Shown here in pieces: positions 532 to 22,048 of a stretch of 29,358 nt of DNA. The stretch comes from a virus. The notes beneath the pieces were generated by a model that saw nothing but the letters and a program-made list of their open reading frames with translations, searched no databases and was not told the DNA's origin. Position numbers and translations under genes: made by a program. The DNA lies in IMG/VR virus record IMGVR_UViG_3300044960_000724, positions 1 to 29,358 of that record. One strand, written 5' to 3'. Numbering within the stretch: the stretch's first letter is position 1; each line of letters begins with the position of its first letter.

Positions 532-814
532 CGAGTACCTCCTCGAGTTCCGTAGGCTCCTCCCCCTCGTACCAGCGAAGAAGGGCCACGTGCAGGTCGC
601 CGTCTTCATCCACTCGCGCGGAGATGAGCGGGGAGAAGGGCAGGGTTTCGGGTTCTACTCCAGTCACCTCGTCGCCAGGCTGGAGGGTAGAGAGGTCAAA
701 GACCTCCTCCAGGCCCTGGGGCTCCAGCCGGGCTGTGAGAATGCGCCCCGTCCAAGTGTAGGCCAGAGATTGCCCTGGAAGAGCGGCTTGGGGGCTGTAG
801 CGGATGTGGATCAT
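524..814 (-). CDS. Hypothetical protein between tail fibre and tail chaperone
   Basis: A 96-residue acidic protein that I do not recognise. The ATG at 814 overlaps the stop of the tail fibre gene (TGATG), and GGAGG lies about 8 nt upstream, so translation is probably coupled to the fibre. A GTG-initiated version three codons longer is less likely. The sequence has a beta-rich look (MIHIRYSP, then LAYTWTGRILTARLEP) and an acidic tail. It may be a fibre accessory or assembly protein by position. Nothing else supports a function. Confidence 0.55.
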   Translation of the reverse strand: MIHIRYSPQAALPGQSLAYTWTGRILTARLEPQGLEEVFDLSTLQPGDEVTGVEPETLPFSPLISARVDEDGDLHVALLRWYEGEEPTELEEVLDG

Positions 815-1731
815 CACACCCACCTCCCGATGGCGATGGTAAATGATGCTGCTATCTGTGGGTTAGATGCGCTCCCCACCTGACCAGCTTCTAGCTGGCA
901 TTGGGATGTGTTCACGTTGTACACGCCGAACGTTTCCGGAAAGCCCGTAGTTTCGCTCACGTCGCCGTTGTGCAGCACTGTTGGGGCCGATGTAAAAGCC
1001 GCTGGAAACGTCCATGTTTTTGTTCTGAACTTGTAAACCACGTAGGTGTTGATGGTATTCGTAATGGTAGACCCATAGGAAGCGTCTGAATGCGATGCCC
1101 AGCAAATCTGCGTCCCATCCGGCAACCGGACGTAGCTCCCGTTGGAGTTGGAGCCGTAAAGTACCCCGGCTCTTTTCCACGGAGCCCAACCGGTCTCATA
1201 CCAGACCCGGTAGTAAATGAACGGGTCATTACTATGAGGGAAATAGAGCTGCACGATGTAATCGTTGCCGGTGCGCTGGGTCACCAGCAAAACCCCCCAT
1301 TTGTAGCTGGCTGGGGGCTGGTTGGAACCCCCGCTGCCAGCGTTCACTATGCTGTAAATGCCGGTAGCCGTTAGGGTATTCCAGTTTACGCTATCAAAGT
1401 TGATAGAACCCCGGTCTAGATAGGCATTGCTGGCAGCAAATGCGCCACTTCCATCCAAATATGGAATGCCGTTGGGCTGGCCTAGGATGCTCGAAGCTAG
1501 CTTGGCCATGTTTATTGCCCCATTGGCTAGCTTCGCCGTGGTCACCGAACCATCCGGGTGATCCAAGGTGGCAGCGGTGCGGTGGGCGGAGAAGTTGCTG
1601 TTGAGCCACTGAGTGCGGTTCAGCAGGCGCTGGAAGAGCGTCTTAAGCGGCCCGATGTTTCGGGGTTCACCCGGCAAGGGTACCTCGAATTGAGTTTCCC
1701 ATTGGTTCTGTGGTGTCAGGTTCTCAGGCAT
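814..1731 (-). CDS. Tail fibre protein
   Basis: A 305-residue fibre that should bind the host surface. The N-terminal part (residues about 25-65: NIGPLKTLFQRLLNRTQWLN, then HRTAATLDHPDGSVTTAKLA) is typical of tail fibres of Mu-like and P2-like phages that plug into the baseplate. The C-terminal two thirds are rich in Gly, Ser, Asn, Thr and aromatic residues, with an NGSYVRLPDGTQICW segment of the kind seen in fibre tips. Base composition is much lower in GC than in the baseplate genes, which suggests a horizontally exchanged receptor-binding module. The ATG at 1731 is preceded by GAGGT. An IS605-like element lies immediately upstream and separates the fibre from the baseplate genes. Confidence 0.87.
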   Translation of the reverse strand: MPENLTPQNQWETQFEVPLPGEPRNIGPLKTLFQRLLNRTQWLNSNFSAHRTAATLDHPDGSVTTAKLANGAINMAKLASSILGQPNGIPYLDGSGAFAASNAYLDRGSINFDSVNWNTLTATGIYSIVNAGSGGSNQPPASYKWGVLLVTQRTGNDYIVQLYFPHSNDPFIYYRVWYETGWAPWKRAGVLYGSNSNGSYVRLPDGTQICWASHSDASYGSTITNTINTYVVYKFRTKTWTFPAAFTSAPTVLHNGDVSETTGFPETFGVYNVNTSQCQLEAGQVGSASNPQIAASFTIAIGRWV

Positions 1732-1756
1732 GGTTTACCTCGCTTCCAGCAAGGGG

Positions 1757-2063
1757 GTGTGGGGGTTTCAAGGCCCACCGCCTTTAGGGGTGGGATGTAG
1801 AAACCCCCACGTGGCCCGGTTTGTGCTAGAATTGCACCTGGAAACTGAAGTTTCCGGGGTCCTTGAGAGTACGGGTAAGGGGTTCCGCCCACGAAGCGCT
1901 GGGCGGGTAAAACCTGTAGCGTAGACCTCGGACGTGCATAAACGTCCAAACTACCGTGGGGCACACGGGAAGTCACGCTTGGGGAGAGGGTGTAAGACCT
2001 GCACATCGTAGGCAGTCCTCGTTGAACCAAGAATCTCACGGATTTATCCGTGGGAGTGTCAAC
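1757..2063 (+). mobile_element. Non-autonomous IS200/IS605-type element with omega-RNA-like right end
   Basis: About 300 bp between the fibre and gp48-like genes, oriented opposite to them. The left end has an imperfect hairpin at 1774-1794 (CCACC...GGTGG) and the right end a hairpin at 2037-2052 (CACGGA-TTTA-TCCGTG). Both have a TTTA loop, and the element closes with GAATCTCAC...GGGAGTGTCAAC, the style of 3' end seen in IS605-group tnpB elements and their omega RNAs. Nearby bases translate to a tail resembling TnpB C-termini (RPAHRRQSSLNQESHG). There is no tnpA or tnpB, so it looks internally deleted and would need factors in trans. A TAGAAT box at 1827-1832 could be an internal promoter. 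Outer limits are approximate. Confidence 0.62.
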
Positions 2064-2065
2064 TC

Positions 2066-2716
2066 CTATGCAATCGCTACCGGCTCAGGGTTCCAAACAG
2101 CACCGTCATCCCACGTGTCCCCGGCATCCCAGACGTCCTTAGGCCCGGGGATGTAGTAGATGGACCTTGCCTTGGCGTGGGCGGGCTTTGCTTCCCTTAA
2201 GATGGCCAGGATGCGGCTCAGCTCAGCGGCCGAGAGCTGATAGTCCCACGGGGTTCCGTCGTCCCACGCCCCTAGCCCGTCGTCCCAACGGTCCGTGATG
2301 TAGGCGGCCACCTTGGGCCAAAGCCACACAGAGAACTCGGCCCAGATGGCGGGGTCGTCCCGGTAGTGCTCGTAGATGTAGGCGTCGTACCCGGCGGCTT
2401 CCAGCCAGGCCAAAACACCGGATACTGTCCCGGCCATCTGCCATAGCGGGATCGCCCGCGTGAGCCGGGCCGCATAGGCGGCGGCGGTCTCGTTGTACCG
2501 CCCCAGGCTCCGGGCCTTCCCGTGCTGAGCGAGCCCCTCCTCGGAGGCCCGGTGGGGGAAGGCCTCGGCCAGGAGGGCGAAGAACTCCTGGAGGAGCTTT
2601 GCCTCCAGCCCCCCGAGGGCCCACAGCACCCCCCAGGCGGCCCCGCCCTCCCGGGGGCGGCGGCCCGGGGGGAGGAGGGAGAGGAGGTGCTGGAAGGCGG
2701 CCTCCCGCAGGTCCAT
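2066..2716 (-). CDS. Baseplate/tail protein, Mu gp48-like (YmfQ / P2 gpI type)
   Basis: A 216-residue protein joining baseplate wedge and tail fibre. The N-terminal MDLREAAFQHLLSLLPPGR segment, the central LTRAIPLWQMAGTVSGVLAWLEAAGYD segment and the C-terminal Trp/Asp repeats (WDDG, WDAGDTWDDGAVWN) fit the YmfQ/DUF2313 group. The order J-like then gp48-like then fibre is the same as in Mu. The ATG follows the stop of the J-like gene directly, with GGAGG overlapping that gene's end. The 3' half has lower GC than the 5' half, which may mark a recombination joint on the fibre side. The stop codon lies three bases from the IS605-like right end. Confidence 0.83.
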   Translation of the reverse strand: MDLREAAFQHLLSLLPPGRRPREGGAAWGVLWALGGLEAKLLQEFFALLAEAFPHRASEEGLAQHGKARSLGRYNETAAAYAARLTRAIPLWQMAGTVSGVLAWLEAAGYDAYIYEHYRDDPAIWAEFSVWLWPKVAAYITDRWDDGLGAWDDGTPWDYQLSAAELSRILAILREAKPAHAKARSIYYIPGPKDVWDAGDTWDDGAVWNPEPVAIA

Positions 2717-8571: not shown

Positions 8572-9197
8572 GGTTTACGCAGGCCGATCTGCGCCAGGTC
8601 GGGGCGCTCCAGGTTCACCACCCCGGGCCCCAGCTCCCGGCGGGTGGGGGCGAAGAGGACCACGGAAGGCCGGTAGTAGCGTCGGGCGGGGGCGTGGTTC
8701 TGCGTGATGAACCGGACCGGGTCAAGGTAGTTCTCTTGAATATAGGCCCGGTTCGTCCCCGGCCAGGCGTCCGCCGGGATGGGGGAGCGCCGCACCTCAA
8801 AGTGGAGGTGGGCGGCGAAGGGCCGGGCCGGGTCCCCCTTGCCGATGCTCCCCACCGGCTCCCCGGCCAGGACCCAGTCCCCCTCCCGGACGGTCATCCA
8901 GAGCAGGTGGGCGTACTGGGTCCAGAACCGGCCCAGGCCGGGAAGCTCGTGCTCCAGGAGGACCACGTTCCCCCAGACCCGGTGGAAGCGGGCGTGGACC
9001 ACCCGGCCCTCGCACGCGGCCACCACCGGGTAGCCCAAATCCTGGTCCCCCGAGGTGGAGCGGAGGTTGAAATCCACGCCGGGGTGCTCGGCGGGCGGGA
9101 GCCCGGCCTTCCTGCGCCACTCGGGATAGGCGGGGTCCAAGAAGCCCGCGTCCACCCGCATCACGTCGGGGGGCTGAAGCGGCCAGATGATCCGCAC
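8568..9197 (-). CDS. M23 family metallopeptidase (LytM-type peptidoglycan hydrolase)
   Basis: A 209-residue zinc endopeptidase that would cut peptide cross-links in the cell wall. Metal-binding motifs are HPGVD (H38, D42), YAHL (H97) and HLHFE (H130, H132), with WGNVVLLEH between them. This is a full LytM/M23 catalytic set. No signal peptide is visible. I chose the GTG at 9197 because GGAGG lies 7 nt upstream. A frame extending to 9245 would translate through the leader hairpin. It is the first gene of the tail operon, just upstream of the tape measure, so it may be a virion-associated wall-opening enzyme or the endolysin. No other lysozyme is visible. Confidence 0.85.
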   Translation of the reverse strand: MRIIWPLQPPDVMRVDAGFLDPAYPEWRRKAGLPPAEHPGVDFNLRSTSGDQDLGYPVVAACEGRVVHARFHRVWGNVVLLEHELPGLGRFWTQYAHLLWMTVREGDWVLAGEPVGSIGKGDPARPFAAHLHFEVRRSPIPADAWPGTNRAYIQENYLDPVRFITQNHAPARRYYRPSVVLFAPTRRELGPGVVNLERPDLAQIGLRKP

Positions 9198-9219
9198 GGT
9201 CGGTCCCTCCAAAAGGCCA

Positions 9220-9291
9220 GCCCCCCGGGCTTCCCCGGGGGGCACTTTGGCACCTTAGCTCTAGCTTAGCGGAAGACCTTGGGGCTGTCTA
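9220..9291 (-). promoter_or_regulatory. Late promoter-leader cassette A (tail operon)
   Basis: On the minus strand: -35 TAGACA (9291-9286), 17 bp, -10 TAAGCT (9268-9263), then GCTAAGGTGCCAAAGT and a 10-bp hairpin GCCCCCCGGG-GAAG-CCCGGGGGGC (9243-9220). The leader is followed by GGCCTTTTGGAGGG, which holds the ribosome site of the M23 peptidase. Two further copies head the packaging operon and the rightward structural operon. The stem is one base pair longer on both sides than in the other copies, a compensated change. The -35/-10 assignment is by eye. Confidence 0.7.
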
Positions 9292-9468
9292 GACCGCCGG
9301 CGTGCTTCAAATTCCTGGTCAGAAACCCAGGAGAACGCCCTCCCGGAGCGGGTTTTTTCTGCGACATGGGGCGGCGAGTTTCGGGCTGAGAGCCTTTTTG
9401 GGGCGGGGGGAGAGGCAGGGGGATAGAGAGGGTAGGGGGCAGGCCAAAGGCGGCCTTTTCCGGGCCTC

Positions 9469-9807
9469 TCAGCCGGTCGTAGGGGGGTTTTCCGAGGGGG
9501 GTTCGGACTCAGCGGGGAACTTCAGCCGGTTCCGGACAAAGGACTCCCAATCGCCCAGGTCAATGTACTCACGCGCCAGGAGGTCCCGGTGGGCGTAGAT
9601 CTCCCGGGCCAAAGCCCAAGCCCGCTCGGGGTCCTCGGCGTAGCCCCGGGAAAGGTGGTTAAGGATGAGGGAGAACTCTTCGATCTCCGCGAGAACCTCG
9701 TCGGGGTCGTACTCCTCGGGATGCATGAGCATCTCTGGGAAACCGGACCACCGCGCGTAGGCCATTTTCAGGGGGGTCAGGCGACCCAGGAAGGTTTCCT
9801 CAGCCAT
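9469..9807 (-). CDS. Small acidic protein downstream of MuF (possible immunity protein)
   Basis: A 112-residue, Glu/Asp-rich, mostly helical protein that I do not recognise (EEYDPDEVLAEIEEFSLILN, then EYIDLGDWESFVRNRL). The ATG at 9807 has GGAGGAGGG upstream and lies inside the last codons of the MuF gene (31-nt overlap), so expression is coupled to MuF. Its GC is lower than that of MuF and the portal gene. Since the MuF protein has a C-terminal extension of the kind that can be a toxin domain, this acidic partner could be its immunity protein. That is inference from order and charge only. Bases 9292-9468 downstream hold no gene that I can support. Confidence 0.55.
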   Translation of the reverse strand: MAEETFLGRLTPLKMAYARWSGFPEMLMHPEEYDPDEVLAEIEEFSLILNHLSRGYAEDPERAWALAREIYAHRDLLAREYIDLGDWESFVRNRLKFPAESEPPSENPPTTG

Positions 9808-10955
9808 ACAACCCTCCTCCACGGCACGTCCAGCTCAGACAAGGCGCTCGCCGCGTAGCCCGTGGCCAGGGTGCCGCTGTGGAAGGAGTATACCACGAGA
9901 AAGTAGGGGTGGGAGGACAACTCGGGGCCGCGGAGCCTCTCCGGCACGACCCAATCCGACCGGACCAGGGCGGCGAGAACGGGACCCTGGGCCCGGCTGT
10001 AGGCCAGAAGGGCCGCCTCCCGGTTCAGGGCCGCCTCCTGGCAGATGCGCTCGTAGTCCTCCGGGGAGATACCGGGGGCCAGCTGCCCATCTGCGAGACG
10101 GCGTAGGAGGTGGAGCTCCAAAGAAGGCCGCTTTTCGTCGCCGAAAGCTTCCCTTTCCTCCGGTTTGGGCCGGACGGCCTTCCGGCTAAAGGGCGCCCGG
10201 CTCATCACCCCCGCCGCGAACAGGGCGTCCCGGGGGTCGGGCCCAAGCCGCCCCTCCGCCAGGCCCCGCAGCCGGTCCACCGCCCCCGCGTAGGCTCCCA
10301 GGGCCTGCACGTAGGCCCTCCAGAGCTCCGGGTGGTAGTCGGTGGGGTTGGGGCTCCACTCGTCCTCCGTGGGCGGCCTTCCGAAGCCGGGCTGGGGCGC
10401 GTGGGGCGGGGGCTCCCTCACGAGGCGCTCCCCCTCCTCCCGGGTGTAGGTGACCAGGGCGGTGCGGCACCCGAAGTGGAGGGGCGGGATGTGGTTGCGC
10501 CAAAAGGGGTGGTCGGCGGGGAGGACGACGCCCGCCAGGGGGGCGCAGATGTGGGAGGTGCGGCCGTCCAGGACCACCTGCAGGCCCCAGTAGGGCCGCA
10601 GGTCCCGGACCTCCTGGGCGGCCTTCCACCGGCCCGCCCCGTAGGCGAGCTGGAGGTTGGTCCGGAAGACCGTTTGGAGTCGCCACCGGCTTCCCTCCCC
10701 CCAGGCTTCGCGCACCTGCGCGGAGAGGTGGGCCTGGAACTCCGGGAAAGGCTCCCCCTGGGCCAGGGCCTCCTCCAGGGCGTCCATCACCTCCTGGACC
10801 AGGTCCAGCGCGGCGAGGCCCGCCACCCAGAAGGCCCGCCGCCGGGCCTCCTCCCGCAGGGCGCGGAACTCGGGGTCCGGGAGGGGGAGCCTCCGCCGGA
10901 ACCAGGCGAGGGCCTCCTCCGGGTGGAGGGGGTCGGGCTCAACGGTCCAGGCCAC
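9777..10955 (-). CDS. F: Head morphogenesis protein F (MuF domain) with C-terminal extension
   Basis: A 392-residue minor head protein. The MuF domain spans about residues 75-170 and shows its signature: D130-GRT, C137, the FW and IPPLHFGCR cluster with H160 and C163. MuF proteins sit at the portal and may enter the cell with the DNA. Residues about 275-392 form an extra domain (DWVVPERL, then PYFLVVYSFHSGTLATGYAAS) resembling the small nuclease-like domains appended to some MuF proteins. No catalytic residues can be named with confidence. It starts with GTG and overlaps the portal gene by 17 nt. The protease/scaffold gene, normally soon after F, is absent here and lies at 22.5 kb on the other strand. 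Confidence 0.9.
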   Translation of the reverse strand: MAWTVEPDPLHPEEALAWFRRRLPLPDPEFRALREEARRRAFWVAGLAALDLVQEVMDALEEALAQGEPFPEFQAHLSAQVREAWGEGSRWRLQTVFRTNLQLAYGAGRWKAAQEVRDLRPYWGLQVVLDGRTSHICAPLAGVVLPADHPFWRNHIPPLHFGCRTALVTYTREEGERLVREPPPHAPQPGFGRPPTEDEWSPNPTDYHPELWRAYVQALGAYAGAVDRLRGLAEGRLGPDPRDALFAAGVMSRAPFSRKAVRPKPEEREAFGDEKRPSLELHLLRRLADGQLAPGISPEDYERICQEAALNREAALLAYSRAQGPVLAALVRSDWVVPERLRGPELSSHPYFLVVYSFHSGTLATGYAASALSELDVPWRRVVWLRKPSWVA

Positions 10956-18104: not shown

Positions 18105-18432
18105 GCCTTTCCTCCTTGAACTGCCGCTCAACCTCCTCCCAGTCGGGCACCCGGGTGACGAGCACCCGGCGGCGGAGCTGGGCGTAGAGGGCCCGGGGCT
18201 GGTGCATCTCCAGCTCGTACTCCACCTGGACCACCCGGTAGGCGATCCGGCGCCCGAGGCGGTTCAGGCAGAACTCCCGCCCCTCCACCGCCCACGAGCC
18301 GTCGCCCAGGAGCATGGCCACGGGCCGGGGGCTTACCAGATTCCCTTCGGCGTCCACCTCGTAGAACTCGGTGGCCTCCTCGCGGCGTATGGGGATCTTG
18401 GCCCCCTCGTACTGGAAGAAGTGGCGCTTCAC
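18088..18432 (-). CDS. Hypothetical protein following MuB
   Basis: A 114-residue protein with alternating strands (FFQYEGAKIPIRREEATEFYEVDAEGN, then RPVAMLLGDGSWAVEGREFCLNRLGRRIAYRVVQVEYELEMHQ) and a charged C-terminal helix. No family is recognised. The ATG overlaps the MuB-like stop by 4 nt (ATGA), so it is co-translated with the transposition genes and may act in replication or target choice. That is positional inference. Confidence 0.5.
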   Translation of the reverse strand: MKRHFFQYEGAKIPIRREEATEFYEVDAEGNLVSPRPVAMLLGDGSWAVEGREFCLNRLGRRIAYRVVQVEYELEMHQPRALYAQLRRRVLVTRVPDWEEVERQFKEERHGEGT

Positions 18433-19202
18433 CGCGCTCCTCCCGCCAGGTTCAGGCGCGCCGCCACCCGGCGCACGTGCCCCGTTTTGAATTCGCTCTT
18501 GGAGATGCCGTTTTGCTCCGCGACCCCGTCCATGATGCGCAGCAAGCGGACCACGTCCCGCAGGATCCCCCCGGTGAGGGCGTGCACCTCCTGGAGGACC
18601 TCCTTGGAGTAGCCGGTGCTGGAGTAGAGCTGGAGCGTCTCCTCCTGCGAGATGGGCCCCGCCTGCGCCACGGTCCCGATCCGGCTCTCAATGTCCCGGT
18701 GGGCCCGGATCAGGGGGGCGAACTCCTCGCTGGTGATGAGGACGAAGCTGCTCCCCGTCTCGTCCGCCAGGAACTTCAGGACCTCCAGCACGCCCCGGTG
18801 GCACAGCTGCGCCTCGTCCACGAAGACGACCCGAGGGGCCATCAGGAGGGCGTCACGGACCATGTTCAGGAGGGGCATGTAGGTCTTGAGCTGCGTGAGG
18901 CGCAGGCGCTGGGCCAGCTCCTCCAAGAGGGCCTTCGGCGACCAGTCCGGCTTGGCCCGGAGCCAGGGGGCCCCGTTCTGCCGCGCCCAGTACTGGCAGA
19001 CGAAGGTCTTGCCCACCCCGGCCGGCCCCACCACCAGGGCGAAGGGGAACTGGTTGCGGGCGGCGAACTGGATGTGGCCGATCAGGGCCCTGGCCCCCTC
19101 CGTGGGGGCGAAGTCCGCCTGCTCGGCCTCCACCAGCCCGGGGCCGAGGGCCTCGTCGATGAGCCGGTTGAGGTCTACGTCCTTGCTCTTCCGTTCACTC
19201 AC
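18429..19202 (-). CDS. B: MuB-like AAA+ transposition target-selection ATPase
   Basis: A 257-residue AAA+ ATPase. Walker A is GPAGVGKT (59-66), Walker B VVFVDEAQ (125-132), and the sensor-1 region is VLITSEE (154-160). A helical lid domain follows (LQEVHALTGGILRDVVRLLRIMDG). In Mu, MuB forms filaments on target DNA, stimulates the transposase and gives target immunity. It lies 12 bp after the transposase stop, as expected for an A-B pair. A short N-terminal region replaces the helix-turn-helix of Mu B, so targeting may differ. Confidence 0.92.
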   Translation of the reverse strand: MSERKSKDVDLNRLIDEALGPGLVEAEQADFAPTEGARALIGHIQFAARNQFPFALVVGPAGVGKTFVCQYWARQNGAPWLRAKPDWSPKALLEELAQRLRLTQLKTYMPLLNMVRDALLMAPRVVFVDEAQLCHRGVLEVLKFLADETGSSFVLITSEEFAPLIRAHRDIESRIGTVAQAGPISQEETLQLYSSTGYSKEVLQEVHALTGGILRDVVRLLRIMDGVAEQNGISKSEFKTGHVRRVAARLNLAGGAR

Positions 19203-19214
19203 GGTTCCACCTCC

Positions 19215-21020
19215 TCAATCGCCCAGGAGGCCCTGCGCACGCAGGAACTCGTCCCCCAAGGCGATGGGGTCCAGAATCAGCTCCTCCTCGGAGTCCAGCT
19301 CGGCCACCGCCCGCCGGATTTCCTCCTCGGAGGGCTTGGGAACGGGAACCGAAACGGCCCGCTCCCTCCTGAGGGGGCTGAGGCCGGAGAGTCGCTCCAG
19401 TACGGCCTCCAGGCGCATGGCGGGCACCTCCAGCTCCGCCCGCAGGGCCTCGGCCTCCTCCCGCACGCGCTGCAGGGCCTCCCGGTCCAGGGCCCGCTGG
19501 GCCTGGGCCTCCAGGCTGGCGGCGGAGGCGGGCTCGGGCACCAGGTTGCCGAGCACCTCCAGCGTCCCGTCCGGCCGTTCCAGGGCCGCCCGCAGAGGCT
19601 GCCCGGGCAGGACGGTGACCTCCAGGACCCACACCGGCCTCCCCTGCCAGGGGATGAGGGAGCCCCCCTCCAGGACGTAAGCCCGGCCCTTGTAGTGGAC
19701 CGCCCCGTTCGCCCGCACCTGGCGGCGCGACCGGACGGCGGTGAGGAGGTACAGGTCCCCCAGGTCGTAGCGCACCTGAGTCGCGGGGGGCACGAAGGCT
19801 TTGAACAGGCCCAAGCGGCTCATACCGTCTAGGGGCTTCTCGTGCCAGTCCCGCACGAACCAGGCGAGGGCGAGCTTCTTGTACTCCTCCTCAAGCAAAA
19901 GGCGTTTCGGGTAGGGGTCCCGCTCAGGGGGTGCCCCGGCCTGGAGCCAGCGGCGGGTGTTCTCCATGAGGCGGCGGAGCTCGGCGGAGTCCCGCTCGGT
20001 GGCGTCCTGCCCGGCGTACCCCGGCAGGAGGCGTTCAAACTCCTGGTGGAAGAGGCCGAAAAGCCGCTCCACCTTGCCCCGCGTGTGGGAGACCCGGGGC
20101 CGGGAGTAGACCAGCTCAATCCCCAGCCGGGCCGCGATCTCCTCGGTCAGCTCGCTCCGGTACACCTTGCCGTTGTCCCAGTAGATGCGCTCGGGTCGGC
20201 CCCAAACCTCCCACCCCGGCACGAGGGCCTCCTTCGGCTGCAGGGCGAGGATGAGGAGCTGGCTGGTGGGGGTCTGCCCCTCCTCCCGGGAGAAGACCAC
20301 CCCGGGGGCCGCCCCCGAGAACACGTCCACGGCCACGTGGATGCGCAACCGGACTGCCCGGTCCTCCTCGGGCACGTAGACGAAGGTGTCGCACCGGGTC
20401 ATGTCCACCATCCAGATCTGGTTGGGGTACTCCGCCAGGACGTGGCCGTGCCACGTGCGCTGGAACTCCTTCCGGCCCTCCTCGGTGAGGAGGGCGTAGC
20501 GGAAGGCGGGCATCTCCTCCGCCCACCGCAGGACCCGGCGGGCGGTGGCCTCGCTGATCTGCCGCCCACGCCACGTGAGGAGCCCGGGGTCGTTGAACTC
20601 TATGATGCGGAGGAGCCTCTGAACCGAGGCCCGGGGATGCTCCAGCCGGAGGCCCAGGAGAACCCGCCGAAACTCGGCGGGGACGCGGAAGAGGCCCTTG
20701 TCCCGGCGGGGGCGTGAGGGCAGGCCCCGCTTAAGGAGGCGGAGGACATAGCTCTCCGAGATCCCGTGTTCCTGCGCGGCGGAGCGGACCAAATCCCAGC
20801 GCGCACCCCTGGGGAGGGAGTCCCACTCCTGCCTGAGGGCCAGAACCCCCTCCAGGCGGTGAGAACGAGGGGTCTCGTCCTCGACGACGACGTAGGTCCG
20901 CCATCCCCGCCCCTCTCTGCGGCGCTCGGCCCGGAGGAGACCGTCCCGGATGCGGAGCTCCAGCGTTCGCCGGGAAACGCCCATTCGGGACGCGGCTTCG
21001 TCAATGGGAAGCCACGGCAT
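19215..21020 (-). CDS. A: MuA-like DDE transposase
   Basis: A 601-residue transposase that joins phage ends to target DNA for integration and replicative transposition. An N-terminal helix-turn-helix (residues 3-30, PIDEAASRMGVSRRTLELRI) and a second DNA-binding region (80-160) precede an RNase H-like core with D206 (WMVDMTR), D282 (IYWDNGK) and E318 (GKVERLFG). The D-E spacing of 35 is canonical. A Mu-type beta-barrel domain follows (about 410-470, ANGAVHYKGRAYVLEGG), then a coiled C-terminal part that should contact the B protein. It overlaps the Cro/Ner-like gene by 20 nt. Its sites are the repeats at both phage ends. Confidence 0.96.
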   Translation of the reverse strand: MPWLPIDEAASRMGVSRRTLELRIRDGLLRAERRREGRGWRTYVVVEDETPRSHRLEGVLALRQEWDSLPRGARWDLVRSAAQEHGISESYVLRLLKRGLPSRPRRDKGLFRVPAEFRRVLLGLRLEHPRASVQRLLRIIEFNDPGLLTWRGRQISEATARRVLRWAEEMPAFRYALLTEEGRKEFQRTWHGHVLAEYPNQIWMVDMTRCDTFVYVPEEDRAVRLRIHVAVDVFSGAAPGVVFSREEGQTPTSQLLILALQPKEALVPGWEVWGRPERIYWDNGKVYRSELTEEIAARLGIELVYSRPRVSHTRGKVERLFGLFHQEFERLLPGYAGQDATERDSAELRRLMENTRRWLQAGAPPERDPYPKRLLLEEEYKKLALAWFVRDWHEKPLDGMSRLGLFKAFVPPATQVRYDLGDLYLLTAVRSRRQVRANGAVHYKGRAYVLEGGSLIPWQGRPVWVLEVTVLPGQPLRAALERPDGTLEVLGNLVPEPASAASLEAQAQRALDREALQRVREEAEALRAELEVPAMRLEAVLERLSGLSPLRRERAVSVPVPKPSEEEIRRAVAELDSEEELILDPIALGDEFLRAQGLLGD

Positions 21021-21316: not shown

Positions 21317-22048
21317 ATGACGGGCAACCCAGCACAGGCCATTCGGAAACGGTTGAGACAGTTGGGGATAAGCCAGGCGAGGTTTTCTCAGCTCGTAGGG
21401 AAGAGCCCGGGGTGGGCAGCAGCACGCTTTCTACCAGATGTTGAAAGGAGTGTACGTTATTTCCTCTACAAGGAGCCTAGTACGTTTGACCGCATCCTTA
21501 GAGCCTTGAAATGGACCCCGGCAGACTTCGCCCGCGAGACCGGAATAGAGCTCCCCGGTGCTCAACCTACCCCTCTGGAGCGCATGGGGGCGGAGCCCGT
21601 GAGCATGGCCCAGGTCCCCCTGGTGGGGGTGGTCTCCGCCGGACGGGGGGACAGCGAAGCAGGGTTTATGGGGTTCGTGGAGGTCCCCACCGATCTGGTG
21701 AGGCGCTTCCAGGAGCACCTGTACGCCCTTCGGGTGGACGGGGACTCCATGTTCTGCGAGGGCCTCCCATATTCCATCCCCCCGGGGGCCTACGTGGTGG
21801 TCTCTCCCGGCCTGGAAGCTCAGCCCGGAGACCTGGTGGTCGCGTGGGACGAAGAGAACGGGGTCGGTTATCTGAAGGAGTTCAAGCCAAAAACTGACGG
21901 CTACCAGGTCCTCCGAAGCTGGAACCCCGAGGTCCCGCCCATCGTGATCAGGAGTGGAAATCGGGTCCGGATACAGGGCGTGGTGGTGTACGTGAGCTAT
22001 GCTCCCAGGGAGGCCCAGCTCTGGAGCCGCGCAAGGAACTACAATTGA
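21317..22048 (+). CDS. LexA/CI-type phage repressor with S24 peptidase domain
   Basis: A 243-residue repressor. The N-terminal helix-turn-helix (about 5-75, RKRLRQLGISQARFSQLVGKSPGWAAARFL) is joined by a linker to an S24 self-cleavage domain. The predicted cleavage bond is A108-G109 (VVSAGRG), the nucleophile S144 (VDGDSMF) and the general base K187 (GYLKEF). It should keep the prophage silent and be inactivated after DNA damage through RecA. This differs from Mu's own c repressor, which is not a LexA-type protein. No terminator of its own separates it from late cassette C just downstream. Confidence 0.92.
   Translation: MTGNPAQAIRKRLRQLGISQARFSQLVGKSPGWAAARFLPDVERSVRYFLYKEPSTFDRILRALKWTPADFARETGIELPGAQPTPLERMGAEPVSMAQVPLVGVVSAGRGDSEAGFMGFVEVPTDLVRRFQEHLYALRVDGDSMFCEGLPYSIPPGAYVVVSPGLEAQPGDLVVAWDEENGVGYLKEFKPKTDGYQVLRSWNPEVPPIVIRSGNRVRIQGVVVYVSYAPREAQLWSRARNYN

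What the first reader, a model, noticed from the sequence alone, without database searches (positions are those of the whole stretch)
1757..2063. tnpB-less IS605-type element with omega-RNA-like end inside the tail operon
The region has left and right hairpins with TTTA loops and the GAATC...GGGAGTGTCAAC end of IS200/IS605 elements, but no tnpA or tnpB. It lies opposite to the tail operon, just before the fibre gene. If transcribed on the plus strand, an RNA with an omega-RNA-like 3' scaffold would use the adjacent phage bases (TCCTATGCAATCGC...) as guide. It may be a passive hitch-hiking MITE, or an RNA that engages a host TnpB to affect competing phages or fibre expression.
Basis: partly seen in the sequence, partly recalled or inferred. 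Interest (0 to 1): 0.72.

Follow-up and report, generated by a model that had tools for sequence, protein, structure and literature searches.

The report
Phage-borne transposon remnant with guide RNA
A 324-base jumping element with no genes of its own sits between two tail genes of a virus of heat-loving bacteria; it keeps the ends a transposase needs and an intact-looking guide RNA for the cutting enzyme TnpB, and a near-identical copy sits in an unrelated virus, so it moves between viruses using enzymes supplied from elsewhere.

Summary
Window 1739-2062 is a 324-bp non-autonomous IS200/IS605 element (PATE type) in a Mu-like phage, probably of Thermales. It is inserted 3' of TTAC and ends in TCAA, in the stop/ribosome-site/start junction between a tail gene and the fibre gene. 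Related phages have 8-9 bp there. A second copy (99-100% identical over the 256 bp covered) lies in an unrelated phage contig at another TTAC site, also antisense at a stop/SD/start junction. A full-length tnpA+tnpB relative (1737 bp) shares the right 113 bp at 87%; its TnpB is ISDra2-like with RuvC residues present. The last ~121 nt are an omega-RNA scaffold: a covariance model built without the window finds it at E=5e-26, and stems 1-4 plus the pseudoknot known from ISDra2 cryo-EM covary (16 of 33 pairs changed on both sides). No tnpA or tnpB was found in either phage. The left tip rebuilds a Shine-Dalgarno site for the downstream gene at both insertions. Transposition in trans is strongly implied. 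Loading of a host TnpB and cutting of element-free phages is inferred and untested. Known kind (PATE), but a variant: phage-borne, tnpB-less, with a conserved omega-RNA.

The parts
1739..2062 (+). whole non-autonomous IS200/IS605 element (PATE), 324 bp
   Evidence: ends fixed by two independent insertions TTAC|CTCGC...GTGTCAA|; related phages Riverbug and MMP7 have 9 and 8 bp between the same two genes
1735..1738 (+). TTAC target site retained on the left flank (IS608-type CL; predicted TnpB TAM)
   Evidence: sequence; same tetranucleotide at the second insertion; IS608 CL TTAC / CR TCAA / GR GAAT / GL AAAG in PMC5934647
1739..1749 (-). left tip CTCGCTTCCAG; read on the minus strand with the flanking GTAA it gives GGAAGCGAGGTAA, a replacement Shine-Dalgarno site
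   Evidence: pairing with the 16S tail -12.6 kcal/mol at both insertions versus -11.5 and -5.9 for the joined empty sites; other elements' left tips +0.9; 14 of 2000 shuffled tips as strong
1759..1810 (+). left-end hairpin: outer stem 11 bp, inner stem CCCACC/GGTGGG with TTTA loop (TnpA recognition hairpin)
   Evidence: same architecture after GTTAC upstream of tnpB in D. taeanensis L017
1822..1832 (+). extended -10 promoter-like TGTGCTAGAAT, possible start of the guide-RNA transcript
   Evidence: 0.01 expected in window; pattern chosen after seeing the relative; similar TGTGCTATACT precedes tnpA in the full-length relative; the sigma-70 scan found no -10/-35 pair
1813..1941 (+). middle part of unknown origin
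   Evidence: no similarity to the full-length IS or to phages; GC 57% versus 70% for the window; fold z -3.2 for 1836-1941, -1.0 for 1813-1941
1942..2062 (+). omega-RNA scaffold (stems 1-4 and pseudoknot)
   Evidence: leave-one-out covariance model E=5.1e-26; 87% identical to tnpB 3' end plus right end of G002; covariation
1960..1962 (+). pseudoknot 5' strand GGC
   Evidence: aligns with ISDra2 -105..-103; pair 22-122 is C-G in three Thermales-type rows and A-U in three Deinococcus rows
2058..2060 (+). pseudoknot 3' strand GTC (ISDra2 -5..-3)
1978..1981 (+). stem 2, 5' strand (pairs with 2028-2031)
   Evidence: two compensatory pairs; matches ISDra2 stem 2
2028..2031 (+). stem 2, 3' strand
1986..1991 (+). 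stem 3a, 5' strand (pairs with 2015-2020)
   Evidence: all cells paired, 5 of 6 pairs with changes on both sides
2015..2020 (+). stem 3a, 3' strand
2031..2034 (+). GAAT, right-end guide tetranucleotide (GR)
   Evidence: identical to IS608 GR
2034..2055 (+). right-end hairpin (TnpA recognition; omega-RNA stem 4)
1956..2061 (+). in-frame fossil of the TnpB C-terminus (VGHTGSHAWGEGVRPAHRRQSSLNQESHG)
2063..2082 (+). predicted guide CTCCTATGCAATCGCTACCG (phage DNA: 3' end of the tail gene)
   Evidence: position inferred from known TnpB omega-RNA anatomy
814..1731 (-). tail fibre gene downstream of the insertion
   Evidence: PHROG tail fibre E 6.9e-17; Riverbug tail fibre
2066..2716 (-). tail/baseplate gene upstream of the insertion; its stop codon is 3 bp from the element
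   Evidence: Riverbug tail protein 64% identical; PHROG tail protein

Best explanation
This is a non-autonomous IS200/IS605 (IS608/ISDra2-type) element, a PATE. It lost tnpA and nearly all of tnpB but kept both transposase-recognition ends and a functional-looking omega-RNA scaffold. A Y1 transposase supplied by a host IS moves it through single-stranded DNA to sites 3' of TTAC. Here it landed on the strand opposite the tail operon, in the TAG-GAGG-TAAACC-ATG junction before the fibre gene. Its left tip (minus strand GGAAGCGAG next to GTAA) rebuilds a Shine-Dalgarno site, so the insertion is probably tolerated. Its plus strand is probably transcribed from an internal extended -10 site into an omega-RNA whose guide is the adjacent tail-gene sequence. 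When a matching host TnpB is present, that RNA can direct cutting of TTAC plus CTCCTATGCAATCGC, that is, genomes that lost or lack the element, favouring its retention and spread. Shown here: element identity, ends, target, recent movement between unrelated phages, covarying omega-RNA fold (about 0.95 as a package). Inferred: transposase in trans (about 0.9), RNA made and selected (about 0.6), TnpB loading and cutting (about 0.45). The score is for the element being a mobile PATE whose omega-RNA is still a working guide RNA.
For: Related phages have 8-9 bp at the site and no insert. Joining the flanks gives TAGGAGGTAAACCATG, a normal stop/SD/start. Second copy in unrelated contig G003: left 136 bp at 99% and right 120 bp at 100%, flanks GTTAC| and |TCCAC; the two phages share only a 40% identical M23 peptidase plus the element. 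Full-length relative in G002: right end 87% over 113 bp, E 1.4e-33, left end E 1e-3, Y1 transposase E 1.4e-36 and a TnpB matching ISDra2 TnpB at 5e-93 with GIDLG / IEDLN / HDRD present. Omega-RNA: 97.5% of pair cells standard versus 34-41% when slid, 16 pairs changed on both sides; RNAalifold finds nearly the same fold unaided; leave-one-out model E 5e-26. Positions of stem 2, stem 3a and pseudoknot match the published ISDra2 structure. SD rebuilding.
Against: No transcript evidence. No consensus -35. The host genome and its TnpB/TnpA are not identified. No element-free phage with TTAC plus the guide was found in IMG/VR, and Riverbug's site has no TTAC, so a real in-trans target is not shown. 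The immediate parent, with this exact left end and middle part, was not found. Conservation of stems 1-3 could partly be inherited from the time the ancestor still had tnpB.
Confidence: 0.6

Rival explanations
1. A purely passive PATE: only the ends matter, and the omega-RNA part is a recent leftover with no activity.
For: Terminal-only PATEs move in Haloquadratum, and one (HqIRS71) keeps a C-terminal tnpB segment (PMC3119063). No transcription evidence. Movement needs only the ends.
Against: Stems 1-3 and the 5' pseudoknot strand lie 30-100 nt from the end and are not needed by TnpA, yet they are intact here and carry differences from G002 that keep pairing (stem 3b G-U for A-U; stem 1 ACT/AGT for CGTC/GACG). 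The M. taiwanensis tnpB remnant also keeps the full scaffold after its reading frame decayed.
Confidence: 0.3
2. The RNA acts as a decoy: it loads host TnpB with a harmless guide (its own target is destroyed by the insertion) and so spares phage DNA from host TnpB, or lowers transposition of host IS elements.
For: The same anatomy would do this; the guide has no TTAC-flanked match in its own genome because the element separates the two (inference from sequence).
Against: No evidence that host TnpBs target phages; nothing in the sequence favours this over the drive model.
Confidence: 0.06
3. A regulator of the fibre operon (antisense RNA, terminator or TldR-like repression), kept for the phage's benefit.
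For: Position just before the fibre gene and antisense orientation; at the second site it also follows a tail-type gene. Phage TldR systems regulate host flagellin (PMC13418256).
Against: Absent from related phages; the second insertion is before a different small gene in an unrelated phage; no terminator-like site; TTAC is rare in the phage (16 and 17 sites per strand), so few harmless sites exist; the SD site is rebuilt, which points to tolerance.
Confidence: 0.04
4. An ancestral leader of the fibre operon or chance hairpins, not a transposon.
For: None remaining.
Confidence: 0.01

Closest known systems
PATEs (palindrome-associated transposable elements) of Haloquadratum, e.g. HqIRS71
   Same: Short, no transposase gene, sub-terminal palindromes of IS605 type, no target duplication; HqIRS71 keeps part of the tnpB C-terminal region (PMC3119063)
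   Different: This one is in phages (probably of Thermales), has a demonstrated covarying omega-RNA fold, and rebuilds a Shine-Dalgarno site at its insertion sites
IS605-type element of G002 (IMGVR_UViG_646564546_000003, 8621-10357), tnpA+tnpB
   Same: Right end and omega-RNA 87% identical; similar left end with GGGGGTGTGGGG and hairpin; TCAA right tip
   Different: 1737 bp, has both genes, left flank TTAT instead of TTAC, no related middle part
ISDra2 of Deinococcus radiodurans (TnpB 8h1j/8bf8; omega-RNA structure PMC10097598)
   Same: Same omega-RNA layout: stems 2, 3a, 4 and pseudoknot at matching positions; the relative's TnpB matches ISDra2 TnpB at 5e-93
   Different: ISDra2 is autonomous, uses TTGAT and ends TTCAA; pseudoknot is GAA/UUC there, GGC/GUC here
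IS608 of Helicobacter pylori
   Same: TTAC left, TCAA right, GAAT right guide (PMC5934647)
   Different: Full-length; left guide AAAG there, CAAG here
TnpB gene drive of IS200/605 elements in plasmids (PMC11870625)
   Same: Proposed logic: the guide records the insertion site and directs cutting of element-free replicons
   Different: There tnpB is carried in cis; here it would have to come from the host, and the replicon is a phage

Membership tests
IS200/IS605 non-autonomous element (PATE) | sub-terminal imperfect palindromes at both ends | tested here: met
IS200/IS605 non-autonomous element (PATE) | insertion 3' of a fixed short target, no target duplication | tested here: met
   TTAC at two insertions; joined flanks give a clean stop/SD/start
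IS200/IS605 non-autonomous element (PATE) | right tip TCAA with GAAT guide 5' of the hairpin | tested here: met
IS200/IS605 non-autonomous element (PATE) | left guide tetranucleotide matching the target (AAAG for TTAC) | tested here: inconclusive
   CAAG before the left hairpin, 3 of 4
IS200/IS605 non-autonomous element (PATE) | no transposase gene | tested here: met
IS200/IS605 non-autonomous element (PATE) | autonomous relative sharing the ends | tested here: met
   G002, and D. taeanensis, D. wulumuqiensis, A. silvanus right ends; the left-end match is weaker
IS200/IS605 non-autonomous element (PATE) | mobilised in trans by a Y1 transposase | not testable with these tools
   implied by two near-identical copies at different sites
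TnpB omega-RNA (ISDra2 type) | scaffold at the right end with stems 1-4 | tested here: met
   window stem 1 needs a one-base shift on its 3' side
TnpB omega-RNA (ISDra2 type) | pseudoknot between the 3' tip and a loop about 100 nt upstream | tested here: met
   three pairs, 100% of cells, one compensatory
TnpB omega-RNA (ISDra2 type) | bound by TnpB, guide from the right flank | not testable with these tools
   needs RIP-seq or a cleavage assay
TldR (TnpB-like repressor) system | adjacent nuclease-dead TnpB gene | tested here: not met
   no TnpB-domain match in the window
Rfam-curated RNA family | match at gathering threshold | tested here: not met
   the full-length relative also has none

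The most novel reading that the evidence does not exclude
A tnpB-less element that spreads through phages by carrying only the guide RNA and borrowing the host's TnpB in trans: the RNA directs the host nuclease to cut co-infecting phages that lack the element, a gene drive split between phage (guide) and host (nuclease).
Probability: 0.3. Interest if true: 0.8.

Novelty: new variant of a known kind. Interest (0 to 1): 0.5.

Why it matters
TnpB and its omega-RNA are normally studied as one locus. Here the RNA is separated from the nuclease, kept in an element that moves between unrelated phages, and aimed at the element-free site. If it is loaded in trans, host TnpBs would be a shared resource that phage-borne elements exploit, which resembles the two-part layout of CRISPR-Cas12. 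The element gives a compact natural test. The rebuilt Shine-Dalgarno site is a simple, checkable way in which an insertion can be harmless.

Tried and rejected
Rfam found no family. The tail-protein scan of viral contigs found no relative. L021, L022 and L023 matched the GTAAGACC pattern by chance. Predicted empty-site patterns gave only chance hits: L052 is an unrelated gene ending QPAIA* before GGAGGTAAAC, and L053-L057 are unrelated. A sigma-70 -10/-35 pair and an intrinsic terminator were not found. The middle part 1813-1941 matches nothing compared. Considered and rejected: fibre-operon leader, TldR-type regulator, chance hairpins.

Full report
What is there. The window is a 29,358-bp virus record. 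Its genes are those of a Mu-like contractile-tail phage: a transposase matching phage transposase families (19215-21020), a DNA transposition protein (18429-19202), a repressor, head protease, tail sheath, tape measure, baseplate J and a fibre. Its nearest named relatives for the tail genes are Thermus phage Riverbug and Meiothermus phages MMP7/MMP17, so the host is most likely in the Thermales (inference).

The insert. In Riverbug and MMP7 the tail-protein gene and the fibre gene are separated by 9 and 8 bp. In the window they are 334 bp apart. Joining 1738 to 2063 gives, on the operon strand, GCATAGGAGGTAAACCATG: stop codon, Shine-Dalgarno site, start codon, just as Riverbug has TAGGAGGAGGATATG. 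The insert is therefore 1739-2062, 324 bp, with TTAC on its left and TCAA as its right tip.

A second copy. A pattern scan of IMG/VR found contig IMGVR_UViG_3300044960_000467 (G003, 33,699 bp). Its first 120 bp equal element positions 205-324 (100%) and its last 136 bp equal positions 1-136 (99%), so the contig is broken inside the element. The flanks differ: GTTAC| on the left, |TCCACTAGCC on the right. Joined, the operon strand reads CTAGTGGAGTAACAACATG, again stop/SD/start, between a tail-type gene and a small coiled-coil/membrane-type gene that looks holin-like (the holin label is by eye). Apart from the element the two phages share only an M23 peptidase at 40% identity. This fixes both ends, shows TTAC at both sites, and shows recent movement between unrelated phages. 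Two events are few; the left target rests on two cases.

The full-length relative. G002 (IMGVR_UViG_646564546_000003) holds a 1737-bp element with a Y1 transposase (Pfam Y1_Tnp, E 1.4e-36) and a 399-aa TnpB. Its last 113 bp are 87% identical to the window's (E 1.4e-33) and its left end shares GGGGGTGTGGGG and the hairpin layout (E 1e-3). The TnpB matches ISDra2 TnpB (8h1j, 8bf8) at 5e-93 and has GIDLG, IEDLN and HDRD where the RuvC residues lie. The window still carries an in-frame fossil of that TnpB's C-terminus. Deinococcus and Allomeiothermus plasmids have tnpB directly before near-identical right ends, and D. taeanensis also has the same left-end layout after GTTAC. Neither phage has a Y1 transposase or TnpB domain.

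The omega-RNA. Six right ends (window, G002, a decayed tnpB remnant on a M. taiwanensis plasmid, three Deinococcus ISDra2-like elements) were aligned. With 33 pairs placed by hand from the published ISDra2 structure (PMC10097598) and the alignment, 97.5% of cells pair, against 34-41% when the partners are slid; 16 pairs change on both sides; no shuffle reaches the pairing, score or both-sides counts. RNAalifold, which predicts its own structure and has no pseudoknots, gives essentially the same stems. The pseudoknot pair 22-122 is C-G in the three Thermales-type rows and A-U in the three Deinococcus rows. A covariance model built without the window finds it at E 5.1e-26. Caveats: the structure was partly fitted to these sequences, six sequences fall in two clades, and the folding energy of the scaffold alone is unremarkable (z -1.3). 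Homology and covariation carry the claim, not the energy.

Why the RNA may matter. TnpA needs only the ends (established for IS608, PMC5934647), but stems 1-3 and the 5' pseudoknot strand are up to 100 nt inside. Their retention suggests use as RNA. TGTGCTAGAAT at 1822-1832 (0.01 expected) resembles TGTGCTATACT before tnpA in G002 and could start the RNA; no -35 was found. The guide would be CTCCTATGCAATCGC, and the insertion itself separates it from TTAC, so the phage's own genome is not a target (inference). In plasmids, TnpB of IS200/605 elements cuts element-free copies and drives spread (PMC11870625). The same could occur here only with a TnpB from the host. That step is untested.

The ribosome site. 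Inserting 3' of TTAC on the strand opposite an operon separates the purine-rich SD core from GTAA. The element's left tip reads GGAAGCGAG on the operon strand, giving GGAAGCGAGGTAA. Predicted pairing with the 16S tail (Thermus anti-SD ACCUCCUUUCU, from general knowledge) is -12.6 kcal/mol at both insertions, against -11.5 and -5.9 for the joined sites; tips of two other elements give +0.9, and 14 of 2000 shuffled tips do as well. TTAC is rare in the phage (16 and 17 sites per strand), so target scarcity plus selection against gene disruption explains the position without any regulatory role.

Known kinds. PATEs, including one with a C-terminal tnpB segment, were described in Haloquadratum (PMC3119063), so the class is known. 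The searches of open papers found none on a phage-borne tnpB-less element with a demonstrated omega-RNA fold; subscription papers are not held, so this is not proof of absence. Verdict: new variant of a known kind.

Noticed in passing
window 18429-21020, 21317-22048: The phage is Mu-like: transposase (PHROG 310), DNA transposition protein (PHROG 296) and a repressor, while its tail genes resemble those of Riverbug, whose annotation has an integrase.
   Followed up: partly
L002:2876-3092 (Meiothermus taiwanensis plasmid pMtWR-220): A decayed tnpB 3' remnant with a conserved omega-RNA scaffold and no tnpB gene adjacent: another tnpB-less omega-RNA, not annotated.
   Followed up: partly
window 1813-1941: Middle part of the element matches nothing compared, and part of it coincides with the 68 bp missing where the second phage's contig is broken.
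   Followed up: partly
window 1739-1746 and the left tip of the G002 element: The first 8 bases CTCGCTTC are the exact reverse complement of GAAGCGAG at the left tip of the full-length relative; chance or an inverted tip was not resolved.
   Followed up: no
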